DNA of 62,833 bases from an uncultured Methanobrevibacter sp. (GTDB lineage: Archaea; Methanobacteriota; Methanobacteria; Methanobacteriales; Methanobacteriaceae): the NCBI GenBank assembly GCA_900314605.1, contig OMVX01000006.1:1-62833 (forward strand), read 5' to 3'. Below the pieces are notes generated by a model. The model was not told where the DNA came from, did no database searches, and saw nothing but the letters and a program-made list of their open reading frames with translations. Position 1 is the stretch's first letter; the number at the start of each line of letters is the position of its first letter. The translations under genes and the position numbers were made by a program. Shown here piece after piece: positions 7,807 through 40,978 of this stretch.

Positions 7807-7977
7807 TCTAAATTTTACTCATTATTATAATTTAATTAATAATTAGATTATTTTAATTTAAACTTTTTACTAAATTAAAGACTTTATCAAAAACTTTATT
7901 GTTTTGTATTTTTTTTTGAAGAAAAAATTAATTTTAATTTTTGATTCTATTTAAAAATAGTTTAATTTAATAAAAAG

Positions 7978-8023
7978 TTGGAGTAATGTTTTTATTTTCT
8001 AAACAAAATAATAATTACTCCAA
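7978..8023. terminator. Hairpin between asnB and NRPS1
   Basis: TTGGAGTAAT (7978-7987) and ATTACTCCAA (8014-8023) are perfect inverted repeats. Inner complementarity TATTTT/AAAATA extends the stem. The element lies between two convergent genes in T- and A-rich sequence, so it could terminate transcription from both sides. Confidence 0.55.
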
Positions 8024-8067
8024 ATAATTATTTTTTAAAAATTAAAATCATTTAAGTTTTTAAAGTG

Positions 8068-11000: not shown

Positions 11001-14000
11001 AAATACCTAATACACAAAACATATACAATTCAGATTTCTCAACCAAAAATCCAACTTTATCCTGCTTATGAATACCCATGTCCTTTAAAGATAATGCAAT
11101 CTTATCTGCAATAAACGCACCTTCCCCGTAAGTATAAGACTTATCCCTATAAGAAACAAGTATATTATCAGGAGATTTTTCTAAATTTACATTAAAAGCA
11201 TCTAAAAGATCACTATAAGTTAAATCATAACTTGTATCATTATATGTATCTAAAAGCTCTAAATCAGAAGAACTAACATAGTTAATATCAGATAAATTAT
11301 CCACACCTAATAACTGATTTAATATCATATTATATGATTCAACAAAACGTTTGATAGTATCTGAAGAAAATTCACTAGAATATATAACTTTTACTATATA
11401 CTTATTATTTATTTCAAAAATACGGAACTCGAGATCAGAAACATTAAAATACTGTTCATTAACATCATCAAAATTAGGATGAAATTGGAACAATATTGAA
11501 GAATTAATATTATATTCCTGAGTTAAAATCCTAAATGGGTAAAAATTATAAGAAAATACATTAAATATTAATTCTTTAACATCACCCATAAAAGAACTAA
11601 CATCTTTATTATTGCAATCAACAAGTAGTGGTAATGTATTTACAAACATACCAATTGATTCATAATTACTTAAGTTGTCACGACCATTATTCAAAACATT
11701 AAACAATACTTGATTATCTCCTGTAAATCTAGATAAAGTGTAAGCAAAAACACCTGTAAACAAAATATTTTCACTAATATCATAGGATTTTAATAAAACA
11801 TCAATATCAGAATTACTTACATCTAAATTTAGAGAATAAGATCCTGCTTCATTATCCCCCACATCACTTAAAATAGAAGAAACATCATCAACCTCACATA
11901 ACATAGACTCATAAAAAGCTTCAGCATCAGAATATTCATTTGTTTTAACAATTTCCTCATCATAAACACGGGATTTAACAATACCATTATCTAATTTTAA
12001 TAATTTACCTTCCAATAAATCAAATAAATGTTGTTTAAAAACTATACTAGAAAATCCATCAAAAATCAAATGATGAAAAACACCAAATAATATCCAATCT
12101 TCATCATTACCCTCATCCACAAGTAAAAAACGAGCCAAACTACTATTTATATCAAAAGAGCTATCTATAAAATCAGAAATAACTTCTTCATCATTTTCAT
12201 TTAAATAATCAACTTTAGGATTCACACCAGTTTTCAAACAAGCGGTCCCATCAACAACATTAATAAAAGATTTCAATATTGTATGAACATTAAACATTTC
12301 ATATAATGCATTTTTAATATCATCAGCAGTATAATTCCCTGGAATAGTAATAGTAAGAGGAATATTATAAACATCATTTTTCTCATATCTTATAATATCT
12401 AGATAAACATTTAACTGAGACTCATTTAAAGGACAACCTTTATCTAAAGAATATTTACTATAATTCAAATCCATTTGAGTATTATTTTTAATATGCTCTG
12501 CAATCTTAATAGGAGTTCCTAAAGATATCACATTATTTACAGATAAATTATAATCTGCTAATTCCCTTACAATTTTCATTGCTGTAACTGAAGTACCACC
12601 TAAATGTATAAAATTATCATAAACACTAATATTTTTCTGATTAAAAAATTTCTCAAAAACCTTAACAACTATCTCTTCAAATTCATTTTTAGGTTCAACA
12701 AAATCAACCTCATCAAACTCAACTGAAGGTAAACTCTTAACATCAATTTTACCATTAGGATTTAAAGGCAAACTATCCATATGAACATAAAAAGAAGGAA
12801 CCATGTAAGAAGGCAAATTAACACTTAAATACTCTTTAAGATCATCCTCATCAATATCAACATCTGATGAATAATACGCAATCAAATGGTCTTGACTATT
12901 AACCTTACCTATAACAACTTTAACCTGATTAAAACTATCATACTCAAAAATAGTAGACTCTACACCTTCAGGTTCAATCCTAAATCCATTTAAATTAATC
13001 TGATTATCTTTACGACCAACATAAACAACATTACCATCCTCATTAAAATAAGCTAAATCATTGGTAAAATAAGCTCTTTTACCATTAAACTCGCCATATG
13101 ATTTCTTTGTTTGCTCAGTATTGTTTAAGTATTGTTTAGTAACAGCTGGTCCTGAAATAACAATTTCACCCACAGCACCCACTGGTAACTGCTTTTTATT
13201 ATCATCCAAAATATACACATTAGAATTATCCCAGGGCTTACCAATAATATAATAATCAGAATAATCCTTATTCAACTTATTAATAATTGCCACACCAGAT
13301 GTTTCACTACAACCATAAGCGTTAAACAAAATTGTAGAACAATCACTACGAACTTCAGATTTTGATAAACTAGAACCAGCTAAAGATAAATTATCCAAAT
13401 TTAAATCAAAATTATTATATAAATACAATCCCAAATCTTCAGTTGTAATCAAAAGATAACAATGAAATGTTTTTAAATAATTAACAATATTAGAAATAGA
13501 TTCCTTAGTGGTTTCATTAACAATCAAAGCTTCAAAACCATGCATAAGTGCAGCATAAACCGCTAGAGAAGCAACAAAAGTAAACTTAGCCAAACACATA
13601 TAATTACCTGTACCCCCCTCAGGTAAATTAAAATAATTAATATAATTATAATTAATGTTAATAATATTCCTTTGAGTTAATTCCACACCTTTAGGAACAC
13701 CAGTACTACCACTAGTATATAAAATAAGAGCAGTATCATCCAATCCATTAAAACCCCCGTATTGTTATTTTTTAATGTGTCTAACTTGATTGATTCAACG
13801 TCCTCAAAATCATTATCTGATTCATGAATGATATATTTCGGTGAACTATTGTTAATGATTCTTTGAATATAAGTTTCCGGATAATCATCATCAACAGGAA
13901 TTGCAATAGCACCTAATCTCATTAAACAAACACTTAATAAAGGAAAATGATATGACCTAGGCAAATATAAGATAATTTTATCAGATTTACATATCTTATA

Positions 14001-14866
14001 ATCATTTTGGAGAATGTATGTTATAGAATTTATTAAATTAGCTAATTCTTTATATGTAATTCTATTTGTTTATCATTAATTGCAAAATTATCAGGATATT
14101 TTTCAGTCATTTCATTTATATATTCGGGAATAGATTTATAATCAATCTTAAAATCAGTACTTTTTGAATATTCCTCCAATAAATTTAATTGCCGACTACA
14201 AATAATATCCATTTCACCACATAACTGATGAACATCATTTAAACAATTATTTACAATGGTTTCAATGTTTTCAAGCATAGACTCTATTTCAAATCTACTA
14301 AAAGTATTAATATCATATTCAACTTCAATAGAATCCTTAGATATATTGAATATTATACTTGAATTAATACCACCTTTAATAGGAGCATCCTTTGTCTGGT
14401 TAACTAATGCATAATTGAAGATATATTCACAATAATCAGGATATAATTCATTAACATAATCTTTGAGATTTTCCATAGAATTATCTAAAGCATTATCCAT
14501 CATATTTTTCATCGAAATAAGAAAATCTAAAATAGAAATATTATCATCATATTTAATCTTAAAAAGTGTATCATCAGAATTTAAATTACTATAAGTGAAA
14601 ATAATACCTTCACCATTACAGGTTCTTGATAAATACAATGATATAATACTGGTATAAAATTCAAAGAAAGAAACATTATTCTCTGTTAAAAAATAATCTA
14701 AATCAACCATATCTTTTGAAAAATCATATTTTATCTTATCAAAAATCTTAGAACTATTACAATTAATTAAAAAATTATTAAAAGAATAAATATCTTTTAA
14801 TTTATTTACCCAATACTTATTTTGCAAAAAGATCATCTCCAAATTATACATAAATGGCAGTTTCAA
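8068..14866 (-). pseudogene. NRPS1, frameshifted: partial C-A-T-C-A-T-C
   Basis: A non-ribosomal peptide synthetase read in three frames: 14866-14042, then the frame of 13964-13677 (which is open upstream to about 14055), then 13743-8068 (1891 residues). Two single-base losses explain the breaks, one near 14050-14060 in an A-rich stretch and one near 13755 in a run of five Gs. Domain order: C-terminal part of a condensation domain (about 14830-14150), A1 to about 12730, T1 (LGGTSVTA, about 12600), C (HHLIFDG intact, about 12060), A2 (about 11230-9790), T2 (LGGDSLSA, about 9620), and a terminal C (about 9480-8080) with HHVIFDA. There is no thioesterase or reductase. A1 lacks the substrate-binding Asp (FVAS instead of FDxS). 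A possible start is TTG 14827, after GGAGATGATC. Peptide product unknown. The breaks could be real decay or sequencing errors. Confidence 0.85.
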
Positions 14867-15680
14867 AAATTAAGTTATTTCAATATTGAACATATATTCA
14901 GACACTAATTTTTTTCTCTATTTATTTTTCTTTTTAATTTAAAGTAGTAAATTTAATTTTAATTTTAAGTTAATATATTATTATATAATATATAAAATCT
15001 TCTAATAGTTTTATTCTCTAAAGATTTTCAACTTTCCCCTTTGGTTTCATGTTTTACAAATTCCTTATAATAGAGGATAAAAAACGTATTGGTTGTCAAA
15101 CTATGGATGATTCTTTATTATCATTCAAGTATTGTCTAAAAATATTTTAAGCCTTTAATAGATTTTTTCTTTATCCTGAATGTAATTCTATGATGTTGTT
15201 AAAAATGGAACTTTTCTAAAAATTAATATTTTTAATAGATAATGAACATGTGTATCATTCAGAAATATAAATATTATAAATCCAATTTCATTATATGACA
15301 CCATAAAAATGAAATCAATTACTTTATTTAATATCCAATTTTATAAAATTATACGTGATTTAGAGGAAAATTAATTTTTTCTGATTTTAAAAAAATCACT
15401 AATCTTTAACTAACCATAAAATAGCATAACATCAAATTAAATTGAAAAATATTTCGTAAAAAATTTTTTTAAGTATATTAAAATTATTTAAAATGGAAAA
15501 ATGAATTTTAATATGATTACTCTAAAATTAAAGTTGTGATTAAGATAATGAGATTTTATAAAAAACATTTAAGTTTTTGAAAGTGCCTATATAAAATAAA
15601 TAAACTTTATTAATATAGGAAAACAAAATAATATTATTATAATTTAATATTGATTATTCTTTAAAATAAGGAGTTAAATT
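14867..15680. other. Intergenic region upstream of NRPS1 and gatC
   Basis: About 810 AT-rich bases. A TATA-like run on the minus strand near 14975-14995 could be the NRPS1 promoter. A short plus-strand open stretch around 15040-15150 reads like the middle of a protein (for example GCQTMDDSLLSFKYC), but I do not recognise it. It has no proper start or flanking frame and may be a remnant. No trace of the missing front of the NRPS1 condensation domain was found. Confidence 0.35.
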
Positions 15681-26183: not shown

Positions 26184-27944
26184 TTAATTATGGAAATAAT
26201 TATATACATTTATAGCAGCTTTTTTATTCATTTCATTTACTGTTAATAACTCTTCTACTGATGCTTTTCTAATATTATCAATTGTTTTAAATTCTTTTAA
26301 CAGTGCTAACTTTCGTTTATTACCTATTCCTTGAATATTATCTAATTCTGATTCTGTAATTTTTTTTGATCTTAATTTTCTATGATATGTAACACCAAAA
26401 CGATGTGCCTCATCTCTAACTCTTTGTAAAATATGTAATGATTCTTTGTTATGAGGTATTATAATTGGTTCATTAGATTGTGGTATAAATACTTCTTCAA
26501 ATTCTTTTGCAAGCCCAATAAGTGGTATATCTTCCAGACCTAATTCTTTTAAAACTTCTACAGCTATATTTAATTGCCCTTTACCTCCATCAATAAGAAC
26601 TAAATCTGGTTTTTTATATTCTTCTTCTCCTATTAAAGACTGAAATCTACGAGTTAATAATTCTCTCATCATACCATAATCATTAGGTCCTGGTGTTTCT
26701 AATTTAAATCTTTTATATTGTTTTTTATTAGGTTGACCATCAAAAAAACTGACTTTAGATCCTACTTGCAATGTTCCGGAAATATTACTTACATCATACC
26801 CTTCAATTACATGGGGAACGTTTTTTAATTTAAGATAGTTTTGAAGTTCAATTAAAGAACCTGTTACTTTTTCTTTTTGTTTTTTAATAATTTCCGCATT
26901 TTGTTGAGCCATTCGAATTAAACGTAATTTTTTTCCTTTTTGAGGAATTGTTATTTTTACTTTATTACCTCTTAAATCACTTAACCATTCACTTATTAAA
27001 TCTATATCTTTTAAATTTTCTTCTATTATTATTTCTTTAGGTATATGCCGATTAATCCCATAAAATTGTTGTATAAAACTATATAAAATATCACTGACTT
27101 TTTGATTTTTAGTATTATCCATTAAATAATCTTCTTTTGATACAATTTTTCCATATCGAATGGATAATATAACTAATATAGTAGTATCATCATTTTCACA
27201 ACTAGCTATAATGTCCTGGTCTATTTCATCATTTAATTCGACAAATTGTTTCACCATTACTTCTTCTATGGATTTTATCTGGTCTCTTATTACAGCTGCT
27301 TTTTCAAATTCCATATTATTTGAAGCGTCTTTCATGCTGTTTTTTAAATCTCTAATTATTTCATTATATTTTCCTTGGAAAAATAGATCTATTTTATTTA
27401 TTATCTCTTTATATTCTTCTTTAGTGATAGACCCATTACAGGGTCCATAACATAAATCAATTTGACTGTTTAAACATGGCCCATCCATATTTTTACAAGT
27501 TCGTATTTTAAATAGTTGTTTTAAAAATTTAACAGTAGAACGTACTGATCCAACATCTGTAAAAGGTCCATAATAACTACCACTTTTTGTAATATTCCGT
27601 GTAATAATTAATCTTGGAAAATCTTCTTCAGTAATTTTTACATATGGGTATCTTTTATCATCTTTTAGACGAATATTATATTTAGGCCTATGTTTTTTAA
27701 TTAAATTAGCTTCTAAAATTAATGCTTCTTTTTCTGATTCTGTAACAATATATTCTAAACTATGAAAGTGATTCATTAATATTCTTGTTTTAGGTCTATC
27801 AACTTTATCTTTAAAATAGGATTTGACTCTTTTTCTAAGTGATTTAGATTTTCCAACATAAATAATCTCCTCATGTATATCTTTCATAATATATACACCT
27901 GGTTTTAAAGGTAGATTATCTGGAGAATTTACTTTAGTAGCCAT
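26184..27944 (-). CDS. uvrC: UvrABC system protein C
   Basis: This 586-residue nuclease subunit of bacterial-type nucleotide excision repair makes the dual incision around DNA damage. It has an N-terminal GIY-YIG domain (LPLKPGVYIMKD...IIYVGKSKSLRKR), a UVR helical segment near residues 200-230 (EFEKAAVIRDQI), the RNase H-like C-terminal nuclease (IEGYDVSNISGTLQVGS, LVLIDGGKGQL, VRDEAHRFGVTYHR) and a helix-hairpin-helix end (LDNIQGIGNKRKLALLKEF). It looks intact. ATG 27944 gives MATKVNSPDNLPLKPG; an ATG three codons upstream is also possible. uvrA and uvrB are not in the window. The divergent neighbour is an adhesin-like gene, with a candidate small RNA between. Confidence 0.96.
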   Translation of the reverse strand: MATKVNSPDNLPLKPGVYIMKDIHEEIIYVGKSKSLRKRVKSYFKDKVDRPKTRILMNHFHSLEYIVTESEKEALILEANLIKKHRPKYNIRLKDDKRYPYVKITEEDFPRLIITRNITKSGSYYGPFTDVGSVRSTVKFLKQLFKIRTCKNMDGPCLNSQIDLCYGPCNGSITKEEYKEIINKIDLFFQGKYNEIIRDLKNSMKDASNNMEFEKAAVIRDQIKSIEEVMVKQFVELNDEIDQDIIASCENDDTTILVILSIRYGKIVSKEDYLMDNTKNQKVSDILYSFIQQFYGINRHIPKEIIIEENLKDIDLISEWLSDLRGNKVKITIPQKGKKLRLIRMAQQNAEIIKKQKEKVTGSLIELQNYLKLKNVPHVIEGYDVSNISGTLQVGSKVSFFDGQPNKKQYKRFKLETPGPNDYGMMRELLTRRFQSLIGEEEYKKPDLVLIDGGKGQLNIAVEVLKELGLEDIPLIGLAKEFEEVFIPQSNEPIIIPHNKESLHILQRVRDEAHRFGVTYHRKLRSKKITESELDNIQGIGNKRKLALLKEFKTIDNIRKASVEELLTVNEMNKKAAINVYNYFHN

Positions 27945-28175
27945 ATTAATCATTATTTTTCTATATAAATCAGTATTAATTATTATATTTCAGTCAAATA
28001 ATTAATAAATATTTTTTAATTAATTATTTTATATCTATTTAATATATATAATATTAATATTTTTACTATTTAATAAGTTTTTATTTAAATATAACAGAAA
28101 TAATCATATATTGTTTAAAATAATTTAAATAAAGTGAAATTTTATCTTTAAATTTATTATATAAGTGACAAAACA

Positions 28176-28395: not shown

Positions 28396-29508
28396 ATGTT
28401 TTCTTTTCATTTTTTTAATATCAGAAAAAATCCTTTTTTTTCAAATTTTTATAGTGTATTTTTTGATCAGGCTATTTCTATATTAAACATAGCTGTAATC
28501 AATACTAATGGAAATGATGTTACTTTAGTTATTTCAACTAATGTTGTTGGTGACTTTAATATTACTGTAGGTCCAAATAGTGAAGTTAAATTCATTTATC
28601 AATCATTCACTTTAGAGAACTTTTATAGATTAGCTCCTGGAACTTACCAAGCTATTGTCAATTTTGATGGAAATCAAAATTATACTCCAATTACTATGGA
28701 ACAAGAGTTTGTAATTCCTAGATCTAGTGATGATATTATTATTGTTACTAATAATATAACTGTAGGTAGCGATCTTATTGTAACAGTTTATGCTAAGTTT
28801 GATGGTCTCTTTAATGTAAATGTTGGTAATTATAAAACTGTTGTTAATATTACAGGTGGTGTAGGAAAAGTAACTATACCTAATTTAGCTGCAGGAACTT
28901 ACAATGTTAATGTTAGTTATGTTAAAGATGAAAGTATTTATGCAAACAAAACTATTACTGTTTTAAAATTAAATACTAACATCGTAGCATCTAATTTAGT
29001 TAAATATTATCTTAATAATCAAAAATTAAGTATTACTTTAAAAGATGCTAAAGGTAATTTATTAGCTAATCAAGCTGTAACTCTTCAGATTGGTACTTCT
29101 AAACTTACCGCTAAAACTAATAATAAGGGTGTTGCTACATTTGCTGTTAATAATAAAGTAGGTAATTACAATGCTAAACTTTCATTTGCTGGAGATTCAA
29201 AATATAATCCTTCAACAAAATCAATTACCATTAAAGTAGTTAAACCTATTGTTAAACCAGTTAAATCTAGTGTAAAAAGAAACAGTTATTTACAAGTTTC
29301 CTTTAAAACTTATGATAAAAAAGTAATTAAAAATACAAAAGTTACTATTAAAATCAAAAGTAAAACTTATACTGTAAAAACCAATGCAAAAGGTATTGCT
29401 AAAGTAAAAGTTTCACTTCCTAAAGGAAAATATAGTGTAATTGCTGCTTTTAAAGATACTTCCGTCTATGGTAAAACTAAAACAACATTTAAAATTAGTG
29501 TATCTTAA
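28396..29508 (+). CDS. Truncated Ig-like adhesin protein
   Basis: This 370-residue protein is made of Ig-like beta-sandwich repeats of the kind that end large methanogen adhesin-like proteins. Repeat boundaries are visible at about residues 105-195 (APGTY/AAGTYNVNVSYV), 196-280 (KLSITLKDAKGNLLANQ to GDSKYNPSTKSITIKV) and 285-370 (VSFKTYDKKVIKNTKV to YGKTKTTFKISVS). There is no convincing secretion signal; residues 1-25 are aromatic and partly hydrophobic. The long beta-helix part of normal family members is missing, so this may be the surviving C-terminal end of a larger gene. ATG 28396 has no ribosome binding site. A clean terminator follows the stop. Confidence 0.62.
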   Translation: MFSFHFFNIRKNPFFSNFYSVFFDQAISILNIAVINTNGNDVTLVISTNVVGDFNITVGPNSEVKFIYQSFTLENFYRLAPGTYQAIVNFDGNQNYTPITMEQEFVIPRSSDDIIIVTNNITVGSDLIVTVYAKFDGLFNVNVGNYKTVVNITGGVGKVTIPNLAAGTYNVNVSYVKDESIYANKTITVLKLNTNIVASNLVKYYLNNQKLSITLKDAKGNLLANQAVTLQIGTSKLTAKTNNKGVATFAVNNKVGNYNAKLSFAGDSKYNPSTKSITIKVVKPIVKPVKSSVKRNSYLQVSFKTYDKKVIKNTKVTIKIKSKTYTVKTNAKGIAKVKVSLPKGKYSVIAAFKDTSVYGKTKTTFKISVS

Positions 29509-29751: not shown

Positions 29752-32700
29752 TTAACTTTTTAATTTAATATTTCCTTTATATACTTCTAAAATAGATTCT
29801 TTTAACATTATATCTATAACTGTTTTTATTTTTGATGAAGTTTTCTGAGTTGTGGATTTAAATCCAAAGTTATGTGCAACTTCTTTTATTATATTATCTA
29901 TGGATAGAATTTCATTAAATGTTAAAACTAATTTAATATTTGCTGCGATTTCATCATTAGAAATATTATCAATCATAGGTTTTTCTCTTTTTCTGATTAT
30001 AATTTCAAAATTAATATCGTTAGGATATAAAAATTCATCATTTTCTCTAATTAAACCATTATTTTTACCATATACTATAGCTTCTTCAATGGTTTTTTTA
30101 AGTTTTGAACTCATTCGTTTAATTTGTATATGATCTTTTATTCTTTTAGTGACGATTTTTTTATTAACAGGACCTTCAATCTTTACTATTTTAGTAATTT
30201 CCTCTGCAAGATATGATATTGGATTGTTATAAATTTCCTCTTGAGTTTTAAAATCAAAATCATTTGCTTCAATATATGGTGAAATATAATCTGTTATGTT
30301 TTTATTATTAGGTGAGGATATATTATTATCAGATTTTAAGGGATTATTTTCTTTATCTAAATTTTTATCTTCTAAATTTAAATCTTCTATAAAATTTTCT
30401 ATTTCTTCTATCTCATTTTTGGTGAATTTAGAATTTTTTATCTTTTCTAGGTCTTCTGAATCTAAAAATGTGTCATCTGTATTATATATATCTATATTAT
30501 TATTTATATCAGAATCACTGATGTATTCATCAAAAGGATTATCTGGGATATTATATTCAATCAAAGAATCTTTAACTTGATTTTCATTTAAATTTGAATT
30601 AATTGAGGTATCATTATATTGATTGGTCTTTTCTTCTTTATGATTATCATTATTTTTATGAATATTATGTGTTTGTTCAAAACTTTTTTCCATTTCATTT
30701 ATATCTTGTGATATTTTATCAAATACCTGTGCAACTTCCTCTGGAGATGATTTTTCAATTTCTTGTAATGAATGGTTGATATATTCGAGTTCTTTTTTAA
30801 CATCGGATATTTTATTCATTATAGCTTCATTTGAATTATTTTCATAAGTATTAGAACTCTTTAAAGAAGTATTTTTTCTTGAGGAGATGGTCTCATCATT
30901 AAAGTCTGTTTCATTTGAATTAGTAATATTTTTGATTTCATTATTATTTGTTGTTTTTATGTTACTATATGTATCTGTAATATTTTTGTTATCAAAATCT
31001 TTTATATTCTCTATTTTATTTTGAATATATAATTGATTTTTATCACTTAACTTATTATCATTTAAAATATTTAAATCATAATTATCATTTACTGCAGGGT
31101 TTGATTCATGTATTTTCATATATGTATTTAATGGATTATCTTCATCAGAATCTGTATCTATTAAAGTGTTAATAATTTTATCAAAATCTTCCTCAGTTAT
31201 ATCAAAATCATCCATATTATAATTTAAATTTATATTATCATTATTACTGTCCTTATTTAAATTATTTTCAATATTATGACCTAATATCTGTTTTATATTT
31301 TCTTTTTGGTCCATATCAGAAACTATTTTTTCGTCTGCTTCAACTTCAGGATTTATATTTTTATTATTAGTAACATATTCTACTAATTCTTCTCCCTCTT
31401 TTAATTCTCGGTCTATAGGAACTTCAACATATTCATATTCATCATCTGATGCAATGATTCTAAAATCATCTGAAGATTTAATATGGCTTGAATTATTATC
31501 AGAATCTTGAGTCTCTTGAGATTTAGAGGTTTTGTCAGATTTTTTTGATTTATTTTTCAGACTTTCTAAATGTTTTTTTGATTTCAATTTATTATCTGAT
31601 TTTTTATTTTGATCTTCAGTTTTATAATCATTATTCTTAGAATCACTTTCTATACTACCAGATAAAGTTTTATTTTCATCCTCATCATGATTTGATTTTA
31701 GAGAAGATATTTTAGATTCTATATAAGAACCTATATTTTTAATTTTGTTAGTAGAAGAGCTTTTTTCTTCAATATTTTTATCTTGTTTTAAAGATTCTTT
31801 TGTGTTTTTTGAAGATTTATCATTTTCATTATTTTTTATATCCTCTTTAAGTTCTGAATCTATTTCACTTTTTAACTGATTAATCATTTCGTCATCAACT
31901 GAGATAACATCTTCTAATTCATTATCTTCATGTTCTGATTCCGAATTATTATTGGATTTATCTGATATTTTACGATTACTTTTAGAACCCTTTTCTCCAT
32001 TGTGATTAATTTCTGTTGGTTCGGATCTAGTATATTCATCATCCTCTTTAATATTATCATTATCTTTAAGATCTTTATTTAAGTTGTCATTTTCTATTAC
32101 AACTTCTATAGGAGAATCTATATCTGATTCATTATCTTCAGTTTGATTGTTTTCTTGTTCTTTTAGTTTCTCTTCTTTTTTTCTTTGCTCTTCTTCTTCA
32201 GCTTTTTTTATTGCTTCTAATCTTTTTTGTTTTTCAGCTTCCATTTTTTCTTTAAATTCACGTTCTTCTTTTTCACGACGAGCATCTTCTTTTATTGTTT
32301 CTTTTTTACTTTGTTCAATTGCTTTTATTAATTTTTCTTTGGAAACTTCCCGATTTCTATACCAATCTGTAGACCAAAGATGATACAATTTCCAATCTAA
32401 TCCTTTAAGAACTTGTTCCCTAAGACGGTCTCTATCCCTTGCAACTTTACTGGAAGAATACATTTTTCCATCTGTAGTAATTCCTAAAAGATATCTACCA
32501 GGATTTTCATCATCAACAATAGCTAAATCTACTCTAAAACCTGCACATCCTATATGTTTATGGACTGCATATCCTTGATTAATAAGAAATGTGTAAATTG
32601 CTTCTTCAAATGGTTCTATAACGTCGTTAAAGGTAGGAATATTACCTATAGTTAAATTTTCAGCATATTCTAAAAATTCTTTAAGAGCTCTTACTCCAAA

Positions 32701-35700
32701 TGGAGGATTTGCTGTTAAATGTATATCATGAGATCTAAAATTAGAAAATACTACACACTTTTCTTTTGCACGTGTAACAAGTACATTTAATCGTCTTTCC
32801 CCTCCGTCTTGGTTTAAAGGACCGAAGTTCAGTGACATTTTTCTATTTTGGTCAAATCCATAACCAACACTAATCAATATAACGTCACGTTCATCTCCTT
32901 GAATGGTTTCTAAATTTTTAACAAAGAATTTATCTTCTTTATTTTCTGAAAATAAAGGTTCAAGTTCTGGATGTAATCTTCTTTCTCTTTCAAGTTCTTC
33001 TAAAATAGCGTTCCTTTGAGCTACAGAAAAAGTTCCTACACCTAAACTTTTACTGTCCCCATATTTTTCAAAGTGTTCAAAGATAGCCTCCACAACTGAC
33101 CGTGCTTCACCTTTATTGTGAGACCCTTCCCCTCTTTCATATATGGTATCAGGACAATATTTAAATTTTAATCCTAGTTCTGGATTATCATGTGATGGAG
33201 ATGGATAAACGAGTAAATTATTATCATAAAATTCTCTATTGGAAACTGCAATTAATGATTCATGACGACTTCTATAATGCCATTTTAACATTTTAACTGG
33301 AAATGACATTTTACATAAATGTAAAATACTTTCCATATCTAATGCTCCAGCTACCTCTTCATGTGATTCTCCTTCTATGATTTGATCAAAAAATGAAGTA
33401 GGTGGTAATTGTTGTGTATCACCCATAACTACTGCAGTTTTACCTCTCATAAATGCACCTAATGCATCTTCTGGTTTAACTTGACTAGCTTCATCAAAAA
33501 TAACAACATCAAACTGTAATTTTGGATTTGTTGGGTCTAAATATTGAGCAATAGATAATGGACTCATCATAAAAATAGGTTTTATTTGCTTTATAACTCC
33601 TCCAGCTTTTTCTATAAGCTTACGAACTGGTAAATGGCCGCTTTTTCTAGTAAATTCACCAGCTAAAATCCGTGCCTCTTCATTATCTGCTTGTCCATAA
33701 ATTTTAGGTATTTTCTGATTTAATTTATTAAAAATTCTTTTTTGATTTAATTTTAATATTTTTTTGTCTAAATCTTTGAACTCTTTAATTCTATTTTCAT
33801 GTAATTCTCCAACAAAAGCATTTAACTCAGGATTATCAATAAATAATCTATTAAGTAAACTATCTGCAAAATTACCTAATACTAATGGTTTAACTTCATC
33901 TATTTTGATTTGTCTTTTTTCTATAGTATTAATAAATATACTAGCTATATTATCTTTACAATCTTCTTTAGCTTGTAAATATTGACTCCATAAATGTAGA
34001 GAAGAGAAATGTCCATTCCATTTATTAAATTGTTTGACCCAATCATCAAATGGAACATCCTCTGCATTCATTTTAAATATTTGATGAGTATTAGGTTTTA
34101 ATTTACTTTGAAGTTTATTAAGTTCTTTTTTAAAGTTTTCACCTTCACTAATAAAATCTTTTAATAATATTTTAATCGGCTCTACTTCAAAGTCATTGGT
34201 AATATAGTCATAAATTTTTTCTGTAAATATTTCAAGTTTTAATAGTCGTTTAACCTCAAACATCCATTTATAAATTTTTTTCAACTCTTTAGGAGATTGT
34301 GATAAATTCCATCCATTTGAAAAATATGCATAACCAGTTTCTTTTTCGCTTTCCATCAGCATAGCTAATTTCTGAAATTCTTGAACTTGTTTTAAATCAT
34401 TTAAAACCTCAGAGTCTTTAGGAACTTTTCCTTTATAATATTTAGTAATTTCTTTTTTATTTGATTTAGAAAAGAGAGAAAATCTTTTATTTGATGATTC
34501 TTCAAATTCTTTAATTAATATATTTATATCTTCCAGTAGAATATCTTGGTCAAATTTCATCATTAAAGAATTTTCCATGTTTTGATAATATTCTAAATCA
34601 TTAATTAGTTTGACAGCTCCTTTAGGATTATCCCAAGCAGGGGAATAAAGTATTTTCTTATCAATAATAGGGAAATCAGCATCTAAAAACTCTAAAGCTT
34701 TAAGTGTTTCATTATATTTTTTTAAATTAATTGGTTGTTTAATTCCGAATTTTTCCTCAACTAATTGTGCTTCAATTTTAAAATCATCTAATGCTCTAGA
34801 TGAGTCGGTAATTAACATTTCAATTTCCCTTAAGTCACTTGGAAGTAAACTATTAGGAGAACAATAACTCCATGGATTTTGTTGATTAATAGTTCCATTT
34901 AACTCTGCTAAATTTTCAAGTAACAGAATCATATCATCTAAATCTTTCATAGTTAAATCTTCTGCATGGTCAAATCTAACTAAAGGTAAGATTTTAGATT
35001 GACTAGAGAAATATTCCTCTGCATATTCTTTTTTACCATATAAATCAAATGCAGATAATTGAACTGCATATAATGGTTTATGAATAAGTTGTGAATATTC
35101 ATCTAATTGGACTTTTAAAGTTTCAAGTTTTCGGATAGTTCTATCAATATTTAATTCATTAAGATTTCTAACGTTTGTTGATTTTTGCAGTTCTTTTAAA
35201 AATTTTTTTCTTCGTGTTTTATGAGAATGTAATTCTAAGATAAATTTACCTAAACCTACAGCAGTTAATCTGCTTTTTACAACTTCAAGTGCAGCCATCT
35301 TTTCTGAAACAAATAACACTGTCTTATCTTCAGCAAGTAATTCTGCAATTAAGTTAACAATAGTTTGGGATTTACCTGTTCCAGGAGGACCTTCAACTAC
35401 AAGATTACGGCCGGCTTTAACATCTTCAATAACAGCAATTTGAGATGAATCAGCATCTAAGACTTGGTACATATCTTTATAGCTAATTTTTTCATCTATT
35501 TCATCTTCTTTAAATTCATTTGTATCATTTACAGAAGGATCAAATATTGCTTGAATAAGAGGATGATTAGTCAAATCCACATTTTCTTCCCAACTTTGAG
35601 GATTTAAATCATTATACATAATAAATTTAGTAAATGAAAAGAATCCTAAAGCAACTTTATCTGTAACTTCCCATTTTTTCATTTGATGTACAGCTTCAGA

Positions 35701-36348
35701 TATTTTTCCCATATATTGTTCTGGTGCTTCTATAAAACTCCCTGCTTCAAATTCAGGAATTATTATACCTTCCTCTGCTAGTTTAGTTTTAAGTGAAATA
35801 TTAGTTTGTATATCTTCTCCTGTCCATGATATTGAGAAAGAATTACCTATTTGCTTTCTTTGCATACTAACAGGGATTAAAATTAAAGGAGCTAAATTAG
35901 TTTTTGTTGGTTTAGATTTATCAATCCATTTTAAAAAACCAATAGCTATATATAAAATATTATAACCTTGTTCATCAATCATTGTTTTTGACTGATTATT
36001 AATATAAAATAATTTTTTTTCAAGACCTTTTTCTGTTAAATTAATTTCCAATTTAGTATCATCATGAATAAAATTATTAAATGAAGGTTTTTTAAAACCA
36101 AATCTTGATGATTCTTCTTCAGCATTTTTTTCTTGGTTTGATATAAATTTCATTGATTTATTCTGAAGAACCAGATAACTATACATATTCTTTGGAGATT
36201 GATTAGATATTGTTAATGTTTGTGCACGGTCTTTAAAATTTAAAAGTTGATTTCTAAGTGTTAAATCAAGAAGATTTTTTCGTAAATCTTTAAACTCCTT
36301 TTCTATTTTATTAGATGATGGTTTTTTAGAATTATCTCCTTTGAACAT
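29752..36348 (-). CDS. DUF4011-SF1 helicase-Vsr-DUF3320 protein (Hhe-like defence candidate)
   Basis: This is a very large, 2198-residue protein. Order: DUF4011-like N-terminal region (about residues 10-230); SF1 helicase with Walker A GPPGTGKSQT near 319, Walker B DEASQVKPED near 949, GDTQQLPPT, WHYRSRHESL, and ETIQGDERDVILIS plus LNVLVTRAKEK in the C-terminal RecA half; a Vsr/DUF559-type PD-(D/E)xK nuclease near 1245-1340 (FRVDLAIVDD, LGITTDGKMY); a charged coiled coil near 1340-1400; about 600 low-complexity residues rich in D, E, N, S and K; then DUF3320-like helical units from about 2040 to the end. The DUF4011-helicase-Vsr combination was, as I recall, reported as the single-gene anti-phage system Hhe. 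GTGAGTAATT precedes ATG 36348. It appears to be transcribed alone. Confidence 0.85.
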   Translation of the reverse strand: MFKGDNSKKPSSNKIEKEFKDLRKNLLDLTLRNQLLNFKDRAQTLTISNQSPKNMYSYLVLQNKSMKFISNQEKNAEEESSRFGFKKPSFNNFIHDDTKLEINLTEKGLEKKLFYINNQSKTMIDEQGYNILYIAIGFLKWIDKSKPTKTNLAPLILIPVSMQRKQIGNSFSISWTGEDIQTNISLKTKLAEEGIIIPEFEAGSFIEAPEQYMGKISEAVHQMKKWEVTDKVALGFFSFTKFIMYNDLNPQSWEENVDLTNHPLIQAIFDPSVNDTNEFKEDEIDEKISYKDMYQVLDADSSQIAVIEDVKAGRNLVVEGPPGTGKSQTIVNLIAELLAEDKTVLFVSEKMAALEVVKSRLTAVGLGKFILELHSHKTRRKKFLKELQKSTNVRNLNELNIDRTIRKLETLKVQLDEYSQLIHKPLYAVQLSAFDLYGKKEYAEEYFSSQSKILPLVRFDHAEDLTMKDLDDMILLLENLAELNGTINQQNPWSYCSPNSLLPSDLREIEMLITDSSRALDDFKIEAQLVEEKFGIKQPINLKKYNETLKALEFLDADFPIIDKKILYSPAWDNPKGAVKLINDLEYYQNMENSLMMKFDQDILLEDINILIKEFEESSNKRFSLFSKSNKKEITKYYKGKVPKDSEVLNDLKQVQEFQKLAMLMESEKETGYAYFSNGWNLSQSPKELKKIYKWMFEVKRLLKLEIFTEKIYDYITNDFEVEPIKILLKDFISEGENFKKELNKLQSKLKPNTHQIFKMNAEDVPFDDWVKQFNKWNGHFSSLHLWSQYLQAKEDCKDNIASIFINTIEKRQIKIDEVKPLVLGNFADSLLNRLFIDNPELNAFVGELHENRIKEFKDLDKKILKLNQKRIFNKLNQKIPKIYGQADNEEARILAGEFTRKSGHLPVRKLIEKAGGVIKQIKPIFMMSPLSIAQYLDPTNPKLQFDVVIFDEASQVKPEDALGAFMRGKTAVVMGDTQQLPPTSFFDQIIEGESHEEVAGALDMESILHLCKMSFPVKMLKWHYRSRHESLIAVSNREFYDNNLLVYPSPSHDNPELGLKFKYCPDTIYERGEGSHNKGEARSVVEAIFEHFEKYGDSKSLGVGTFSVAQRNAILEELERERRLHPELEPLFSENKEDKFFVKNLETIQGDERDVILISVGYGFDQNRKMSLNFGPLNQDGGERRLNVLVTRAKEKCVVFSNFRSHDIHLTANPPFGVRALKEFLEYAENLTIGNIPTFNDVIEPFEEAIYTFLINQGYAVHKHIGCAGFRVDLAIVDDENPGRYLLGITTDGKMYSSSKVARDRDRLREQVLKGLDWKLYHLWSTDWYRNREVSKEKLIKAIEQSKKETIKEDARREKEEREFKEKMEAEKQKRLEAIKKAEEEEQRKKEEKLKEQENNQTEDNESDIDSPIEVVIENDNLNKDLKDNDNIKEDDEYTRSEPTEINHNGEKGSKSNRKISDKSNNNSESEHEDNELEDVISVDDEMINQLKSEIDSELKEDIKNNENDKSSKNTKESLKQDKNIEEKSSSTNKIKNIGSYIESKISSLKSNHDEDENKTLSGSIESDSKNNDYKTEDQNKKSDNKLKSKKHLESLKNKSKKSDKTSKSQETQDSDNNSSHIKSSDDFRIIASDDEYEYVEVPIDRELKEGEELVEYVTNNKNINPEVEADEKIVSDMDQKENIKQILGHNIENNLNKDSNNDNINLNYNMDDFDITEEDFDKIINTLIDTDSDEDNPLNTYMKIHESNPAVNDNYDLNILNDNKLSDKNQLYIQNKIENIKDFDNKNITDTYSNIKTTNNNEIKNITNSNETDFNDETISSRKNTSLKSSNTYENNSNEAIMNKISDVKKELEYINHSLQEIEKSSPEEVAQVFDKISQDINEMEKSFEQTHNIHKNNDNHKEEKTNQYNDTSINSNLNENQVKDSLIEYNIPDNPFDEYISDSDINNNIDIYNTDDTFLDSEDLEKIKNSKFTKNEIEEIENFIEDLNLEDKNLDKENNPLKSDNNISSPNNKNITDYISPYIEANDFDFKTQEEIYNNPISYLAEEITKIVKIEGPVNKKIVTKRIKDHIQIKRMSSKLKKTIEEAIVYGKNNGLIRENDEFLYPNDINFEIIIRKREKPMIDNISNDEIAANIKLVLTFNEILSIDNIIKEVAHNFGFKSTTQKTSSKIKTVIDIMLKESILEVYKGNIKLKS

Positions 36349-36699: not shown

Positions 36700-37779
36700 C
36701 TATTGATTACCAATTTTCTCAATTGCTTTAACAATTAATTCAATAGTATTTTCAATATCTTCAGCACTTGCTACACCACATGGGGTGTGAATATATCTTG
36801 TAGGTACTGATATTACACCAGTTGGAATACCTTCTCTTTGAAGGTGAATAGAGGTTCCATCAGTAGTTCCACCATCACTTACTTCTAATTGGTAAGGTAT
36901 ATCATTTTCATCACCTGCGGAAATAAATAAATCTTTAACCTTTTTAGGTGTCATTAATCCTCTTCCACCTGCATCTATAATGATAATTGTTGGCCCATCA
37001 TCCATTTTACTAGATGCTTTGTCTGGTTCCATTCCAGGATGATCACCAGATACAGTTGTATCTAATGCGACAGCCAAATCAGGATTTAATTTATAAGCAG
37101 CAACTCTAGCTCCTTTAAGCCCAACTTCTTCTTGAACTGTTCCAACTCCATAAACAGTTGCATCAGTATTAACTCTTTTAAGTACTTCCATAAGCACATA
37201 ACATCCAGCACGGTTATCAATAGCTTTACCCATAAATCTGTTGTGAGGATATTCAGCAAATACTGTATTAAATGAAATTGGATCTCCAACAGAAACCATG
37301 TTTTCTGCATCTTCTTTATCCTTTGCACCTATATCAATAAACATTTTATCATATGGTACAACCTTATTTTTTTCTTCAACAGTTGTAGCGTGAGGAGGTT
37401 TTGAACCAATTGCTCCTATCACATCTCCTTTAGAGCTATGTATTGTAACTGTTTGATTATGTAACATTTGGTCATTTATACCACCAATTTTTGTAAATCT
37501 TATAAAACCATTATCATCTATATAACGAACCATTAAACCAATTTCATCCATATGACTTGCTAACATTATTGATGGTTTATTGTCTTTACCTTTTTTAGTA
37601 CATATCATATTTCCCATATGATCTTTTTCAATTGAATCTACAACATTTTCTAATTCACGTTGAATAATATTTGCTATATCTGATTCATAACTTGAAATAC
37701 TGTTAGTTTGACATAATTCTCTCATAAGATCCATATTAAAATATTTATCTGCTTTTGATTTTCCTTCATCTTTTGTCAT
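36700..37779 (-). CDS. M42 family metallopeptidase
   Basis: This 359-residue enzyme belongs to the M42 group of dodecameric aminopeptidases (tetrahedral aminopeptidase-like), which degrade peptides in the cytoplasm. Metal ligands are visible in LASHMDEIGLMV (His and Asp), AIDNRAGC (bridging Asp), TVQEEVGLKGA (catalytic Glu pair), ALDTTVSGD and the C-terminal RYIHTPCGVASAED motif. The protein is full length. ATG 37779 is preferred, because the GTG at 37788 is part of the ribosome binding site AAGTGATT. It has no clear operon partner. Confidence 0.93.
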   Translation of the reverse strand: MTKDEGKSKADKYFNMDLMRELCQTNSISSYESDIANIIQRELENVVDSIEKDHMGNMICTKKGKDNKPSIMLASHMDEIGLMVRYIDDNGFIRFTKIGGINDQMLHNQTVTIHSSKGDVIGAIGSKPPHATTVEEKNKVVPYDKMFIDIGAKDKEDAENMVSVGDPISFNTVFAEYPHNRFMGKAIDNRAGCYVLMEVLKRVNTDATVYGVGTVQEEVGLKGARVAAYKLNPDLAVALDTTVSGDHPGMEPDKASSKMDDGPTIIIIDAGGRGLMTPKKVKDLFISAGDENDIPYQLEVSDGGTTDGTSIHLQREGIPTGVISVPTRYIHTPCGVASAEDIENTIELIVKAIEKIGNQ

Positions 37780-38074
37780 GTAAATCACTTTAATTATATT
37801 AAGAATGCTTAATATTTTTTATTATTATACTATAAAAATTTTTTTAATATTTTTATAATTAGTTTCATACTTATTGACTAAATAATTATTTTATTAATCT
37901 TTTATAAATCTAATTTAATGTTTTCAATTAATGTATGATAAATAGTGTAAATGGTATAATTACTACTATATTTTTTATTATTTTTCTTAAAAAATCATAT
38001 TTACAAATAAATTTAAATTATTATTTATAATAATTTTTAGTAGAATTTCAGGAATTTTAATTTGTATGATTAAA

Positions 38075-39175
38075 TTATAGCTTTTCTTTTGATTTTTCAG
38101 TTTTTTCAGTTAATGCTTTAAATCCTATTGGTACCGTACTATATTTTGTACCTGCTGCTGCAATTACATCCCATACTTTATTTGATACAAAAGATTTAGG
38201 TTTCCATGGATTATTTTCATCTTGACCTACTAAAAATACTTCATCTACTATTTCTTTATCTAGTAAATACATTAATATTCCACTTACAACTCCACCATCT
38301 TGACCATTAATACTATTTGATTTTACAGCTAATATATCTAAATATTCGCCAAATGGTTTAGAATCTATATCTTCAGGTAATAGATCTGTACTAACATAGG
38401 TTCTAGGACATGCATAGTAACATCCATGACAATCTTCTTCACATTCTCCATATGCTTGAGGTTTTCTATCATTTATTTGAATGATATTAGATTTACATAC
38501 ATATTCACATGCTCCACATAGTACACATCCACCTACACTTATAACATCAGCTTCTAGATTACTAAATTGACAATTTTTGGATTGATTATGAAGAGTTTTT
38601 TCACTTACATGTCTTTGTGAAAGTACTTGTCTTGCTACTCTTTCTCTAGATTCTATATTTTTTTGATTTGTTCTAATTTTTTTATTTGCAATTGATTTAA
38701 GTAGTTTAAGGCCTTTTTCACTTAACTCTTCACATTTTATTAATTTATTTTCTTTTAGTTCATTTATTATTTTTTGACCTTTTTCTGTTCTTACAATTAC
38801 AGTAGAGTATCCATCTGGTGAACCTACAGAACCGACTGATATATCTGATAGATCTGATGTATAATCGGTACAGATTTGACAGTTTTTACGTGTGAAAACA
38901 TTAGTTTCAGCTATTGGAATAGAAAACTCATTACCGTTAATTAGATTTACTAAAAATTTACCTTTATCAATTCTAAATTCTTTTATCTCATACATTTCTA
39001 TATTATTTTGATTTAAGAATTTTTCAAGGTATGTATATGAAAAGTTCTCCATACAGAATAATCCTACTTTAATATCTATTGGTGAACCTCCAGTTATCTC
39101 ACTATATTTGTTAATTTTTGTAGCGGCTAATATTTGGCATGGAGTTCCTACCATTGCGGTTTTTATTTGATTCAT
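38075..39175 (-). CDS. FrhB-like F420 protein with permuted domain order
   Basis: This 366-residue protein is related to the beta subunit of F420 hydrogenase and formate dehydrogenase, which carries FAD and reduces F420. The normal order is the FrhB N domain and then the C domain. Here the C domain comes first (AMVGTPCQILAATK, GLFCMENFSY, RKNCQICTDYTSDLSDISVGSVGSPDG; residues 1-170). Two ferredoxin-type 4Fe-4S motifs follow (CVLCGACEYVC and CHGCYYACP, about 215-260), and the N domain comes last (GQDGGVVSGILMYLLDK, AAGTKYSTVP; 290-345). ATG 39175 follows AAGGTGATTTTA, so the start is well placed. Partner enzyme unknown. It could have arisen by fusion and deletion between tandem copies. Confidence 0.78.
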   Translation of the reverse strand: MNQIKTAMVGTPCQILAATKINKYSEITGGSPIDIKVGLFCMENFSYTYLEKFLNQNNIEMYEIKEFRIDKGKFLVNLINGNEFSIPIAETNVFTRKNCQICTDYTSDLSDISVGSVGSPDGYSTVIVRTEKGQKIINELKENKLIKCEELSEKGLKLLKSIANKKIRTNQKNIESRERVARQVLSQRHVSEKTLHNQSKNCQFSNLEADVISVGGCVLCGACEYVCKSNIIQINDRKPQAYGECEEDCHGCYYACPRTYVSTDLLPEDIDSKPFGEYLDILAVKSNSINGQDGGVVSGILMYLLDKEIVDEVFLVGQDENNPWKPKSFVSNKVWDVIAAAGTKYSTVPIGFKALTEKTEKSKEKL

Positions 39176-39184
39176 TAAAATCAC

Positions 39185-39728: not shown

Positions 39729-40817
39729 TTAGTAATTTAGTTTATCATTTATTTCTTCATAAATTTGTAAAAATATACGTGCAAGAGAGGTAATATCTAA
39801 TTGATTATGTTTAATAATTGGTATTAATGGTCCAATCTTACCAGTTTCTACATATGTTTTATAATAACCAGGTATATATTGACCTGGTACATCATTAAGC
39901 CTTTCAAATTTACATATATAACTTTCTACACTTTGAAGTTTGCAATTTTTCAGTTTATTACGGTATAGATATCTTGAATTATATAATAAATCATAATTTA
40001 AATGTTTAGAATACTTAATATTAAAATAATCTGCTCTATTTCTAATAAAGGGAATATCAAAACGAGCTCCATTATATGATACATGAACAGAATCAGAATC
40101 TAATGTAGATAAATATGCTTCAATAATAGCTGGTTCTTCTTTACCACACCTTTGAAGAAATTGTTTAGTTATAATTTTATTTTTCTTTATAGTACTAACA
40201 CCAATAAGGATAATAGGAACATTAGATAAACCCATAGTCTCAATATCCATAAATTTAAGATTTTCTACTTCAATTTCTGAAGCAGCCATCATAGTATTAT
40301 ATTTAAGTCCTTGTTTATTAAGTATTTTTAAATATTCAAATAAACTATAAAAATTTGCTGATTCAATTTTTTCATTAATTTTTTTTGCACTTTTAGAATA
40401 AATTGGATGATTTTCTAATTGATCAATATTATTATATCCTTGAGTTTTAAGAATATTTTCTTTATGAGGACCGATTCCATCTAATAATTTTAAATCACAC
40501 TTTAAAATTTCTTTAATATTATTCTCTTTAATTTTAAAATCTATTTTTTCGGTATTGATAATTTCAAGTGTTTCTCCATAACTAGTATTAATAGTTTTTA
40601 CAGTAGGAAAATCTTCGAATTTTTTATCCTCATATTTTAATAGTAAATCTTTTTTTAGGGTTTCATAATAATTTGATAATGAAGAGGTTTGATTATTTAA
40701 ATTTCCTTTTATGGAACCACCTTTATTATATTTATTATTAAAATCCATATTAGAGTCATCATATGATTTTAATAATGTTTTTTTCAAATATATTTCCATA
40801 TCCTCTTCTTTAGACAT
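39729..40817 (-). CDS. RNase H-like DEDD exonuclease (YprB-type) with HhH
   Basis: This 362-residue protein has a C-terminal DEDD nuclease domain of the RNase_H_2/YprB type. Motif I is FMDIETMG near residue 193, motif II is VSYNGARFDIPFI near 248, and the last motif lies in HNQLDITSLARI near 340. A helix-hairpin-helix-like segment (LKLLDGIGPHKENILKTQGY) precedes it near 112-131. It is probably a 3'-5' nuclease acting on DNA or RNA ends in repair, but the substrate is unknown. The frame is open upstream to 40916, where the residues are strongly hydrophobic. ATG 40817 is preceded by GTGATAAT and is the likely start. It is divergent from ogt, another repair gene. Confidence 0.75.
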   Translation of the reverse strand: MSKEEDMEIYLKKTLLKSYDDSNMDFNNKYNKGGSIKGNLNNQTSSLSNYYETLKKDLLLKYEDKKFEDFPTVKTINTSYGETLEIINTEKIDFKIKENNIKEILKCDLKLLDGIGPHKENILKTQGYNNIDQLENHPIYSKSAKKINEKIESANFYSLFEYLKILNKQGLKYNTMMAASEIEVENLKFMDIETMGLSNVPIILIGVSTIKKNKIITKQFLQRCGKEEPAIIEAYLSTLDSDSVHVSYNGARFDIPFIRNRADYFNIKYSKHLNYDLLYNSRYLYRNKLKNCKLQSVESYICKFERLNDVPGQYIPGYYKTYVETGKIGPLIPIIKHNQLDITSLARIFLQIYEEINDKLNY

Positions 40818-40978
40818 ATTATCACATAAAAAGTTATTTATTAAAATTATGTTTTTTATTATTATAAAGATTATTAAATTATCTTTATTATTTAATTTAT
40901 AGAATATTTTTATCAAAAATAATAAATATTATTCTAACATATTTTTATTATAGAATCAATAAATTTCTTAGGAATAAT

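What the first reader, a model, noticed from the sequence alone, without database searches (positions are those of the whole stretch)
29752..36348. Hhe-like anti-phage candidate with a giant disordered insertion
The protein combines DUF4011, an SF1 helicase, a Vsr-type nuclease and DUF3320, the architecture I recall for the single-gene defence system Hhe. Between the nuclease (ending near residue 1340) and the DUF3320 region (from about 2040) lie a charged coiled coil and about 600 residues of D/E/N/S/K-rich low complexity. A linker that long, in a single intact frame, is unusual and could be a flexible tether, a DNA-mimicking acidic arm or a target of regulation.
Basis: partly seen in the sequence, partly recalled or inferred. 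Interest (0 to 1): 0.7.

Follow-up and report, generated by a model that had tools for sequence, protein, structure and literature searches.

The report
Repair-linked helicase with a dead nuclease
A giant helicase that looked like an anti-virus weapon is carried by nearly every relative of this methane-making archaeon, sits beside DNA-repair genes, has lost key residues of its DNA-cutting domain and carries a long acidic floppy arm, so it is more likely a former defence protein now used in genome repair.

Summary
ORF 29752-36348(-) is one intact 2198-aa frame with DUF4011, an SF1 helicase, an MTES_1575 (Vsr-like) nuclease domain, a charged coiled coil, about 610 aa of acidic low complexity, and DUF3320.

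The Hhe reading does not. The score is 923 bits against an NCBIfam cut-off of 2000 for Hhe, and 1304 against 1500 for ProA. The best profile is PADLOC candidate PDC-S37.

Comparative data point to genome maintenance. Nearly all Methanobacteriaceae outside one genus carry the gene once. It is co-oriented with mrfA-mrfB in older lineages and lies -17 to +13 bp from uvrC in 41 others. In this window mrfB and uvrC lie on either side. Across 152 genomes its presence follows mrfB, not uvrC or mrfA. Within the order two nuclease residues decayed repeatedly (window Thr1291 for Glu, Ser1298 for His), while 24 of 24 relatives outside this clade keep the Glu. The domain remains under purifying selection. 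The acidic arm grows from 33-186 to about 380-1100 aa and holds two conserved islands.

Best explanation: a defence-type helicase-nuclease domesticated as an accessory of MrfAB/UvrC excision repair. No function was tested.

The parts
29752..36348 (-). Whole gene, 2198 aa: DUF4011 - SF1 helicase - MTES_1575 (Vsr-like) nuclease domain - coiled coil - acidic disordered linker - tandem winged helix
   Evidence: single copy in assembly
35779..36276 (-). DUF4011 (aa 25-190)
   Evidence: Pfam PF13195, E 3e-43
32731..35448 (-). SF1 (Upf1/Dna2/SMUBP2-like) helicase core, aa about 301-1206, with intact Walker A GPPGTGKS and Walker B DEAS
   Evidence: (motifs invariant or nearly so in 55 aligned proteins)
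32317..32610 (-). MTES_1575 / Vsr-like PD-(D/E)xK nuclease domain (aa 1247-1344), probable pseudonuclease
   Evidence: Pfam E 1e-30; fold helix-EEE-helix-E-helix and matches to I-Bth0305I and RAP-domain proteins
32476..32478 (-). codon of Thr1291 in 'GITTDG', where 24 of 24 relatives outside the clade have Glu (IECDG)
32455..32457 (-). codon of Ser1298, where 19 of 24 relatives outside the clade have His (YHSS)
32149..32313 (-). charged coiled coil (aa 1346-1400)
   Evidence: sequence
30289..32148 (-). acidic, N/S/K-rich disordered linker (aa 1401-2020)
30703..30864 (-). conserved island 1 in the linker (aa 1829-1882; family consensus IKxExxYINxSLKEIENPTxxxxVxVIDRT), predicted helix
30325..30414 (-). 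conserved island 2 in the linker (aa 1979-2008; family consensus LExIIxxxxxxYxxxExERxxxxNxLK), predicted helices
30022..30243 (-). winged helix 1, containing DUF3320 (aa 2036-2109)
   Evidence: DUF3320 E 7e-10; AlphaFold pLDDT over 90; matches include SelB and cullin winged helices
29761..29958 (-). winged helix 2 (aa 2131-2196)
   Evidence: AlphaFold pLDDT over 90
26184..27953 (-). uvrC, nucleotide excision repair nuclease; -17 to +13 bp from the helicase gene in 41 related loci
   Evidence: Pfam; synteny
39729..40916 (-). mrfB-like DEDDh exonuclease (RNase_H_2), same strand, three genes upstream; the gene whose phyletic pattern matches the helicase
   Evidence: DEDDh residues read from the sequence
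36700..37788 (-). M42 aminopeptidase between mrfB and the helicase gene (context only)
38075..39184 (-). FrhB/FdhB-like protein between mrfB and the helicase gene (context; used as neighbour control)

Best explanation
The gene is a vertically inherited Methanobacteriales protein, derived from a defence-type DUF4011-helicase-nuclease family, that now serves genome maintenance alongside the MrfAB and UvrABC excision-repair systems. SHOWN by sequence comparison: near-core distribution, linkage to mrfA/mrfB or uvrC, co-occurrence with mrfB, repeated loss of the nuclease-motif Glu and His with the rest of the domain under purifying selection, and a lineage-specific acidic linker with two conserved islands. 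INFERRED: the DUF4011/SF1 motor loads on damaged or branched DNA and remodels it; the decayed nuclease domain acts as a DNA-binding or docking module, because cutting is supplied in trans by MrfB (3'-5' exonuclease) or UvrC; the acidic linker is a long tether that lets the C-terminal tandem winged helix reach a separate site, and its two helical islands are docking motifs for partners; the negative charge keeps the tether off DNA.
For: (1) Distribution: 126 of 139 family genomes have a relative at E <= 1e-30, with the closely related core copy present in all genera but one (g12); 7 of 8 genomes of family f3 also have it, one of them in two frames. (2) Linkage: co-oriented mrfB within four genes upstream in 16 of 107 core loci, 13 of them with mrfA too, spanning Methanothermobacter-like, Methanobacterium-like, Methanorudis, M. 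cuticularis and this genus; uvrC is the next co-oriented gene in 43 loci, with a gap of -17 to 13 bp in 41. The window has mrfB upstream and uvrC downstream. (3) Co-occurrence over 152 class genomes: with mrfB 105 both, 27 neither, 20 discordant (all draft genomes); 33 of 33 concordant in genomes of 20 contigs or fewer. No association with uvrC (p 1.0) or YprA/mrfA (p 0.6). A neighbouring gene used as control is present in g12, f2 and G144. (4) Nuclease: Glu kept in 15/15 paralogues and 9/9 outside relatives, lost in 83/104 core proteins with at least 8 state changes (T, Q, L, I, K, N, M); flanking motif residues near-invariant; nuclease dN/dS 0.00-0.07 in pairs that lack the Glu, like the helicase. 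(5) MrfA-MrfB is an established repair pair in B. subtilis (PMC11194089), and the MrfB-associated YprA branch is described as DNA-repair-related (PMC12458937).
Against: No experiment. The best profile, PDC-S37, is a candidate defence family, and outside relatives lie in defence islands. A defence gene can be core: a DUF4011 gene is a core flank of P. aeruginosa hotspot cDHS1 (PMC10250203). Co-occurrence with mrfB rests on about three absence points in the class (g12, f2, G144) plus the outgroup G139; Fisher values ignore phylogeny, and linked genes can be lost in one deletion. The uvrC pairing may be one or a few events. The Methanobacterium-like copies keep Glu and His although linked to mrfAB. 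Vsr itself lacks the Glu (own knowledge), so loss of cleavage is inferred. No repair link was found in the lineages where neither mrfAB nor uvrC is adjacent.
Confidence: 0.58

Rival explanations
1. It is a chromosomal antiviral system of the PDC-S37/ProA/Hhe kind that has become core in this order, working as a single-gene helicase-nuclease that senses and destroys invading DNA.
For: PDC-S37 1611 bits, ProA 1304, Hhe 923; outside relatives next to PglZ/BrxL and JetA/JetC; patchy paralogues with intact nuclease motifs in the same family, one beside a type I restriction-like helicase; a core DUF4011 gene flanks a defence hotspot in P. aeruginosa.
Against: The nuclease Glu and His are lost in most core members but not in paralogues; single-copy near-core inheritance and repair neighbours; no defence gene recognised next to it in the window; curated cut-offs for Hhe and ProA not reached.
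Confidence: 0.25
2. It is a nuclease-independent defence or genome-surveillance helicase (sensor and blocker of foreign or branched DNA) in which the pseudonuclease grips DNA, and the repair neighbours are incidental.
For: Helicase motifs intact while the nuclease motif decays; inactivated Vsr domains occur in YprA helicases of Druantia types I and II (PMC12458937).
Against: Two different excision-repair linkages and the mrfB co-occurrence would be coincidence.
Confidence: 0.12
3. The nuclease is still active through a Vsr/EDxHD-like site that does not need the motif Glu, so this is an active repair endonuclease.
For: Glu1248, Asp1274, Asp1293 and Asp1305/Asp1307 stay conserved in nearly all core members; Vsr has no Glu at this place (own knowledge); the nearest nuclease fold is I-Bth0305I.
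Against: The His that an EDxHD-type site would use is also lost (Ser1298 here; His in only 6 of 104 core proteins).
Confidence: 0.15

Closest known systems
PADLOC PDC-S37 (phage defence candidate S37)
   Same: Best profile: 1611 bits over aa 13-1417, same domain order with MTES_1575 and C-terminal DUF3320
   Different: The window's 675-aa coiled coil plus acidic linker is an insertion relative to the 1550-position profile; nuclease Glu and His absent; repair neighbours. PDC-S37 is a candidate, without tested function that I know of.
Anti-phage protein ProA (NCBIfam NF058533)
   Same: 1304 bits, homologous from DUF4011 to past the nuclease
   Different: Below the equivalog cut-off of 1500, as are deeper orthologues (1376-1389), an outside relative (1408) and two paralogues. 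Source of the name not found in the library.
Hhe (NCBIfam NF042953, PADLOC Hhe)
   Same: Shared helicase-nuclease half, 923 / 690 bits
   Different: Far below the cut-off of 2000
MrfA-MrfB (YprA-YprB) mitomycin repair pair of Bacillus subtilis
   Same: Its homologues are the operon-like neighbours in older lineages, and MrfB has the same phyletic pattern
   Different: No DUF4011 helicase is part of the described B. subtilis pathway (PMC11194089)
DUF4011 core gene flanking Pseudomonas aeruginosa cDHS1
   Same: A DUF4011 gene that is core in its species (PMC10250203)
   Different: Borders a defence hotspot rather than excision-repair genes; not compared by sequence here
RAP-domain proteins and Vsr/I-Bth0305I nucleases
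   Same: Nearest folds of the nuclease domain; RAP domains are non-catalytic members of this fold class (own knowledge)
   Different: Weak matches only (best E 2e-3); different proteins and cellular roles

Membership tests
Hhe | NCBIfam NF042953 equivalog cut-off, 2000 bits | tested here: not met
   923 bits; PADLOC Hhe 690 bits, well below PDC-S37
Hhe | Anti-phage activity | not testable with these tools
   no experiment possible
ProA anti-phage protein | NCBIfam NF058533 equivalog cut-off, 1500 bits | tested here: not met
   1304 bits; relatives 1261-1408
PDC-S37 | Match over most of the 1550-position profile, better than any other defence model | tested here: met
   1611 bits, profile 4-1403 in the best of two stretches; deeper orthologue L067 covers 4-1544
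PDC-S37 | Located in a defence island or patchily distributed | tested here: not met
   near-core gene next to repair genes
Active MTES_1575 / Vsr-like nuclease | Motif Glu (IECDG) and His (YHSS) | tested here: not met
   Thr1291 and Ser1298
Active MTES_1575 / Vsr-like nuclease | PD-(D/E)xK-type fold and the remaining conserved acids | tested here: met
MrfAB pathway accessory factor (proposed) | Co-oriented linkage with mrfA/mrfB | tested here: met
   16 of 107 core loci, including the window (mrfB three genes upstream)
MrfAB pathway accessory factor (proposed) | Same phyletic pattern as mrfB | tested here: met
   33/33 in near-closed genomes, 132/152 overall; only about three independent absence points
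MrfAB pathway accessory factor (proposed) | Damage sensitivity of a mutant, epistatic with mrfAB | not testable with these tools
   experiment needed

The most novel reading that the evidence does not exclude
An unrecognised third component of an archaeal MrfAB excision-repair pathway: a defence-family helicase-nuclease that was captured by DNA repair, gave up its catalytic residues several times independently while MrfB or UvrC supplies the cut, and evolved a giant acidic tether with docking motifs.
Probability: 0.4. Interest if true: 0.75.

Novelty: new variant of a known kind. Interest (0 to 1): 0.6.

Why it matters
It offers a traceable case of an anti-virus-type enzyme becoming housekeeping in a whole order of methanogens, with the older (Glu and His intact, mrfAB-linked, short linker) and derived (both lost, uvrC-linked, long acidic linker) states both present in living genomes. 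It also warns that PADLOC or DefenseFinder-style hits to this family in Methanobrevibacter may count a core gene with repair neighbours as a defence system. It makes a direct prediction for archaeal excision repair: the gene should act with MrfB.

Tried and rejected
(a) Hhe or ProA membership: tested, below curated cut-offs. (b) Linker as a frameshift, read-through or assembly artefact: rejected, many orthologues carry it in one frame. (c) Linker as featureless spacer: rejected, two islands conserved. (d) Tracking with UvrC: rejected on phyletic pattern, no association; the uvrC pairing is limited to this genus, g3 and g9. (e) Tracking with YprA/MrfA: not supported, since g12 and f2 keep a YprA without mrfB and without this gene. 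(f) Physical neighbourhood as the whole cause of the mrfB pattern: the FrhB-like neighbour is present in most of g12, in f2 and in G144, though it belongs to a multi-gene family, so the control is imperfect. (g) Solved-structure sequence search for the nuclease: only weak RAP-domain hits. (h) A single-sequence query of genome contigs found nothing; the alignment query worked. (i) Literature searches for DUF4011 and DUF3320 gave three papers and one paper, none describing this function.
Full report
OBSERVATION. The reported ORF is present and intact: 29752-36348, minus strand, 2198 aa, single copy in the assembly. Pfam finds DUF4011 at aa 25-190, SF1 helicase domains, MTES_1575 at aa 1247-1344 and DUF3320 at aa 2038-2084. 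The region aa 1346-2020 is a charged coiled coil followed by 610 aa of acidic low complexity (24% D/E, 12% K/R, net -70) that falls in the disordered half of the charge-hydropathy plot. AlphaFold on aa 1825-2198 gives low confidence for much of the end of the linker but two well-predicted winged helices at the C-terminus.

IDENTITY. By PADLOC the best profile is PDC-S37 (1611 bits), well above Hhe (690). By NCBIfam the protein reaches 1304 bits for ProA (cut-off 1500) and 923 for Hhe (cut-off 2000). The orthologues, paralogues and outside relative tested are all also below both cut-offs. It is therefore a PDC-S37-type protein and not Hhe.

DISTRIBUTION. In its family, 126 of 139 genomes have a relative at E <= 1e-30. 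The core copy is present in all genera except g12, whose members have only patchy 40-50% paralogues or nothing. I take g12 to be Methanosphaera; this rests on its absence from the named list and is not tested. A further 7 of 8 genomes of family f3 have the gene, one of them split in two frames (L255).

NEIGHBOURS. In Methanothermobacter-like loci (L249-L254), Methanobacterium-like loci (L066-L068, L071, L256), L061 and L062 the gene follows co-oriented yprA (mrfA) and mrfB (Pfam MZB, the MrfA zinc-binding domain). The genus-like names for unnamed loci are my reading of their place in the tree, not labels given by the tool. In 43 core loci the next co-oriented gene is uvrC, in 41 of them with a gap of -17 to 13 bp. 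The window's genus retains mrfB three genes upstream and has uvrC downstream; in the window itself one extra opposite-strand Ig-like-domain gene lies between the helicase gene and uvrC. Outside the order the relatives lie in defence islands: PglZ and BrxL in a Methanoperedens locus (L218), JetA and JetC in Methanolobus (L224).

CO-OCCURRENCE. I searched 152 genomes of the class for mrfB, yprA and uvrC. The core gene and mrfB are both present in 105 and both absent in 27; the 20 discordant genomes are all drafts. In 33 genomes of 20 contigs or fewer they agree 33 of 33 times. The core gene shows no association with uvrC or yprA. The two-way counts were compiled by hand from the listings and ignore phylogeny; the shared absences amount to about three points in the class (g12, f2, G144) plus the outgroup G139. 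A neighbouring FrhB-like gene is present in most of those genomes, so linkage alone does not produce the pattern, although that control belongs to a multi-gene family.

NUCLEASE. An alignment of 128 proteins and a tree made without the nuclease columns show that the Glu of the IECDG motif is kept in all 15 paralogues and all 9 outside relatives but lost in 83 of 104 core proteins, to T (58), Q (12), L (6), I (4), K, N or M, needing at least 8 changes of state. The His of YHSS is kept in 6 of 104 core proteins against 19 of 24 others. The other motif positions examined stay near-invariant. Codon comparison gives dN/dS of 0.00-0.07 for the nuclease in pairs that lack the Glu, similar to the helicase, and about 0.15-0.6 for the linker. 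The predicted fold has the PD-(D/E)xK core order and its best matches are non-catalytic RAP-domain proteins and the homing nuclease I-Bth0305I, all weak. Under a PD-(D/E)xK reading the Glu is missing; under a Vsr/EDxHD reading the His is missing; the window lacks both. I therefore infer a pseudonuclease; this is not shown. The window's MrfB keeps its DEDDh residues (DIET, FD, H...D, read from the sequence).

LINKER. Its length rises from 33-186 aa in deep members to about 380-1100 aa in the Methanobrevibacter-type genera, always with net negative charge. Two islands stand out: IKxExxYINxSLKEIENPT...VIDRT and LExIIxxxxxxYxxxExER...NxLK. The window's own versions are divergent. Members that lost the Glu also have longer proteins on average (median 2358 against 1950 aa), but the two traits share one phylogeny and I make no claim of dependence.

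INTERPRETATION. The simplest account is a defence-type helicase-nuclease domesticated in Methanobacteriales as an accessory to excision repair, with cutting done by MrfB or UvrC and the protein contributing a motor, a DNA-gripping dead nuclease, and a long tethered winged-helix arm. MrfAB is a known repair pair in bacteria (PMC11194089), and the MrfB-associated branch of YprA helicases is described as repair-related, while inactivated Vsr domains are known from other YprA helicases (PMC12458937). The alternative of a core antiviral helicase remains open, helped by the P. aeruginosa precedent of a core DUF4011 gene at a defence hotspot (PMC10250203).

Noticed in passing
window 28396-29508 (+): 370-aa Ig-like-domain (Big_3_5/Big_1) ORF on the opposite strand between the helicase gene and uvrC; absent at this place in the two nearest relatives (L037, L038), so it looks like an insertion or a remnant of an adhesin-like gene.
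   Followed up: partly
window 8068-13743 (-): 1891-aa protein with condensation, AMP-binding and phosphopantetheine-carrier domains: an archaeal non-ribosomal peptide synthetase.
   Followed up: no
L037, linker of the orthologue (protein in 7817-14947): Internal tandem repeats of about 30 aa (EYVEVPIDRKLKEGEELVEYIDDTNEEYE) in the acidic linker; the window has one copy, suggesting the arm grows by repeat expansion.
   Followed up: no
L074, L088 (paralogues, 2470 and 2477 aa): Patchy paralogues with intact nuclease motifs whose extra length lies upstream of or within the helicase half, not in the linker; a different expansion in the same protein family.
   Followed up: no
L250 10861-11498, L251, L253, L254: Two small ORFs (about 103-122 aa, no Pfam match for the one tested) between mrfB and the helicase gene in Methanothermobacter-like genomes, some overlapping by a few bases; possible further members of the operon.
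   Followed up: no
L255 (G149): The orthologue is split into 204-aa and 1157-aa frames in a single-contig genome, a possible pseudogene or a sequence error.
   Followed up: no
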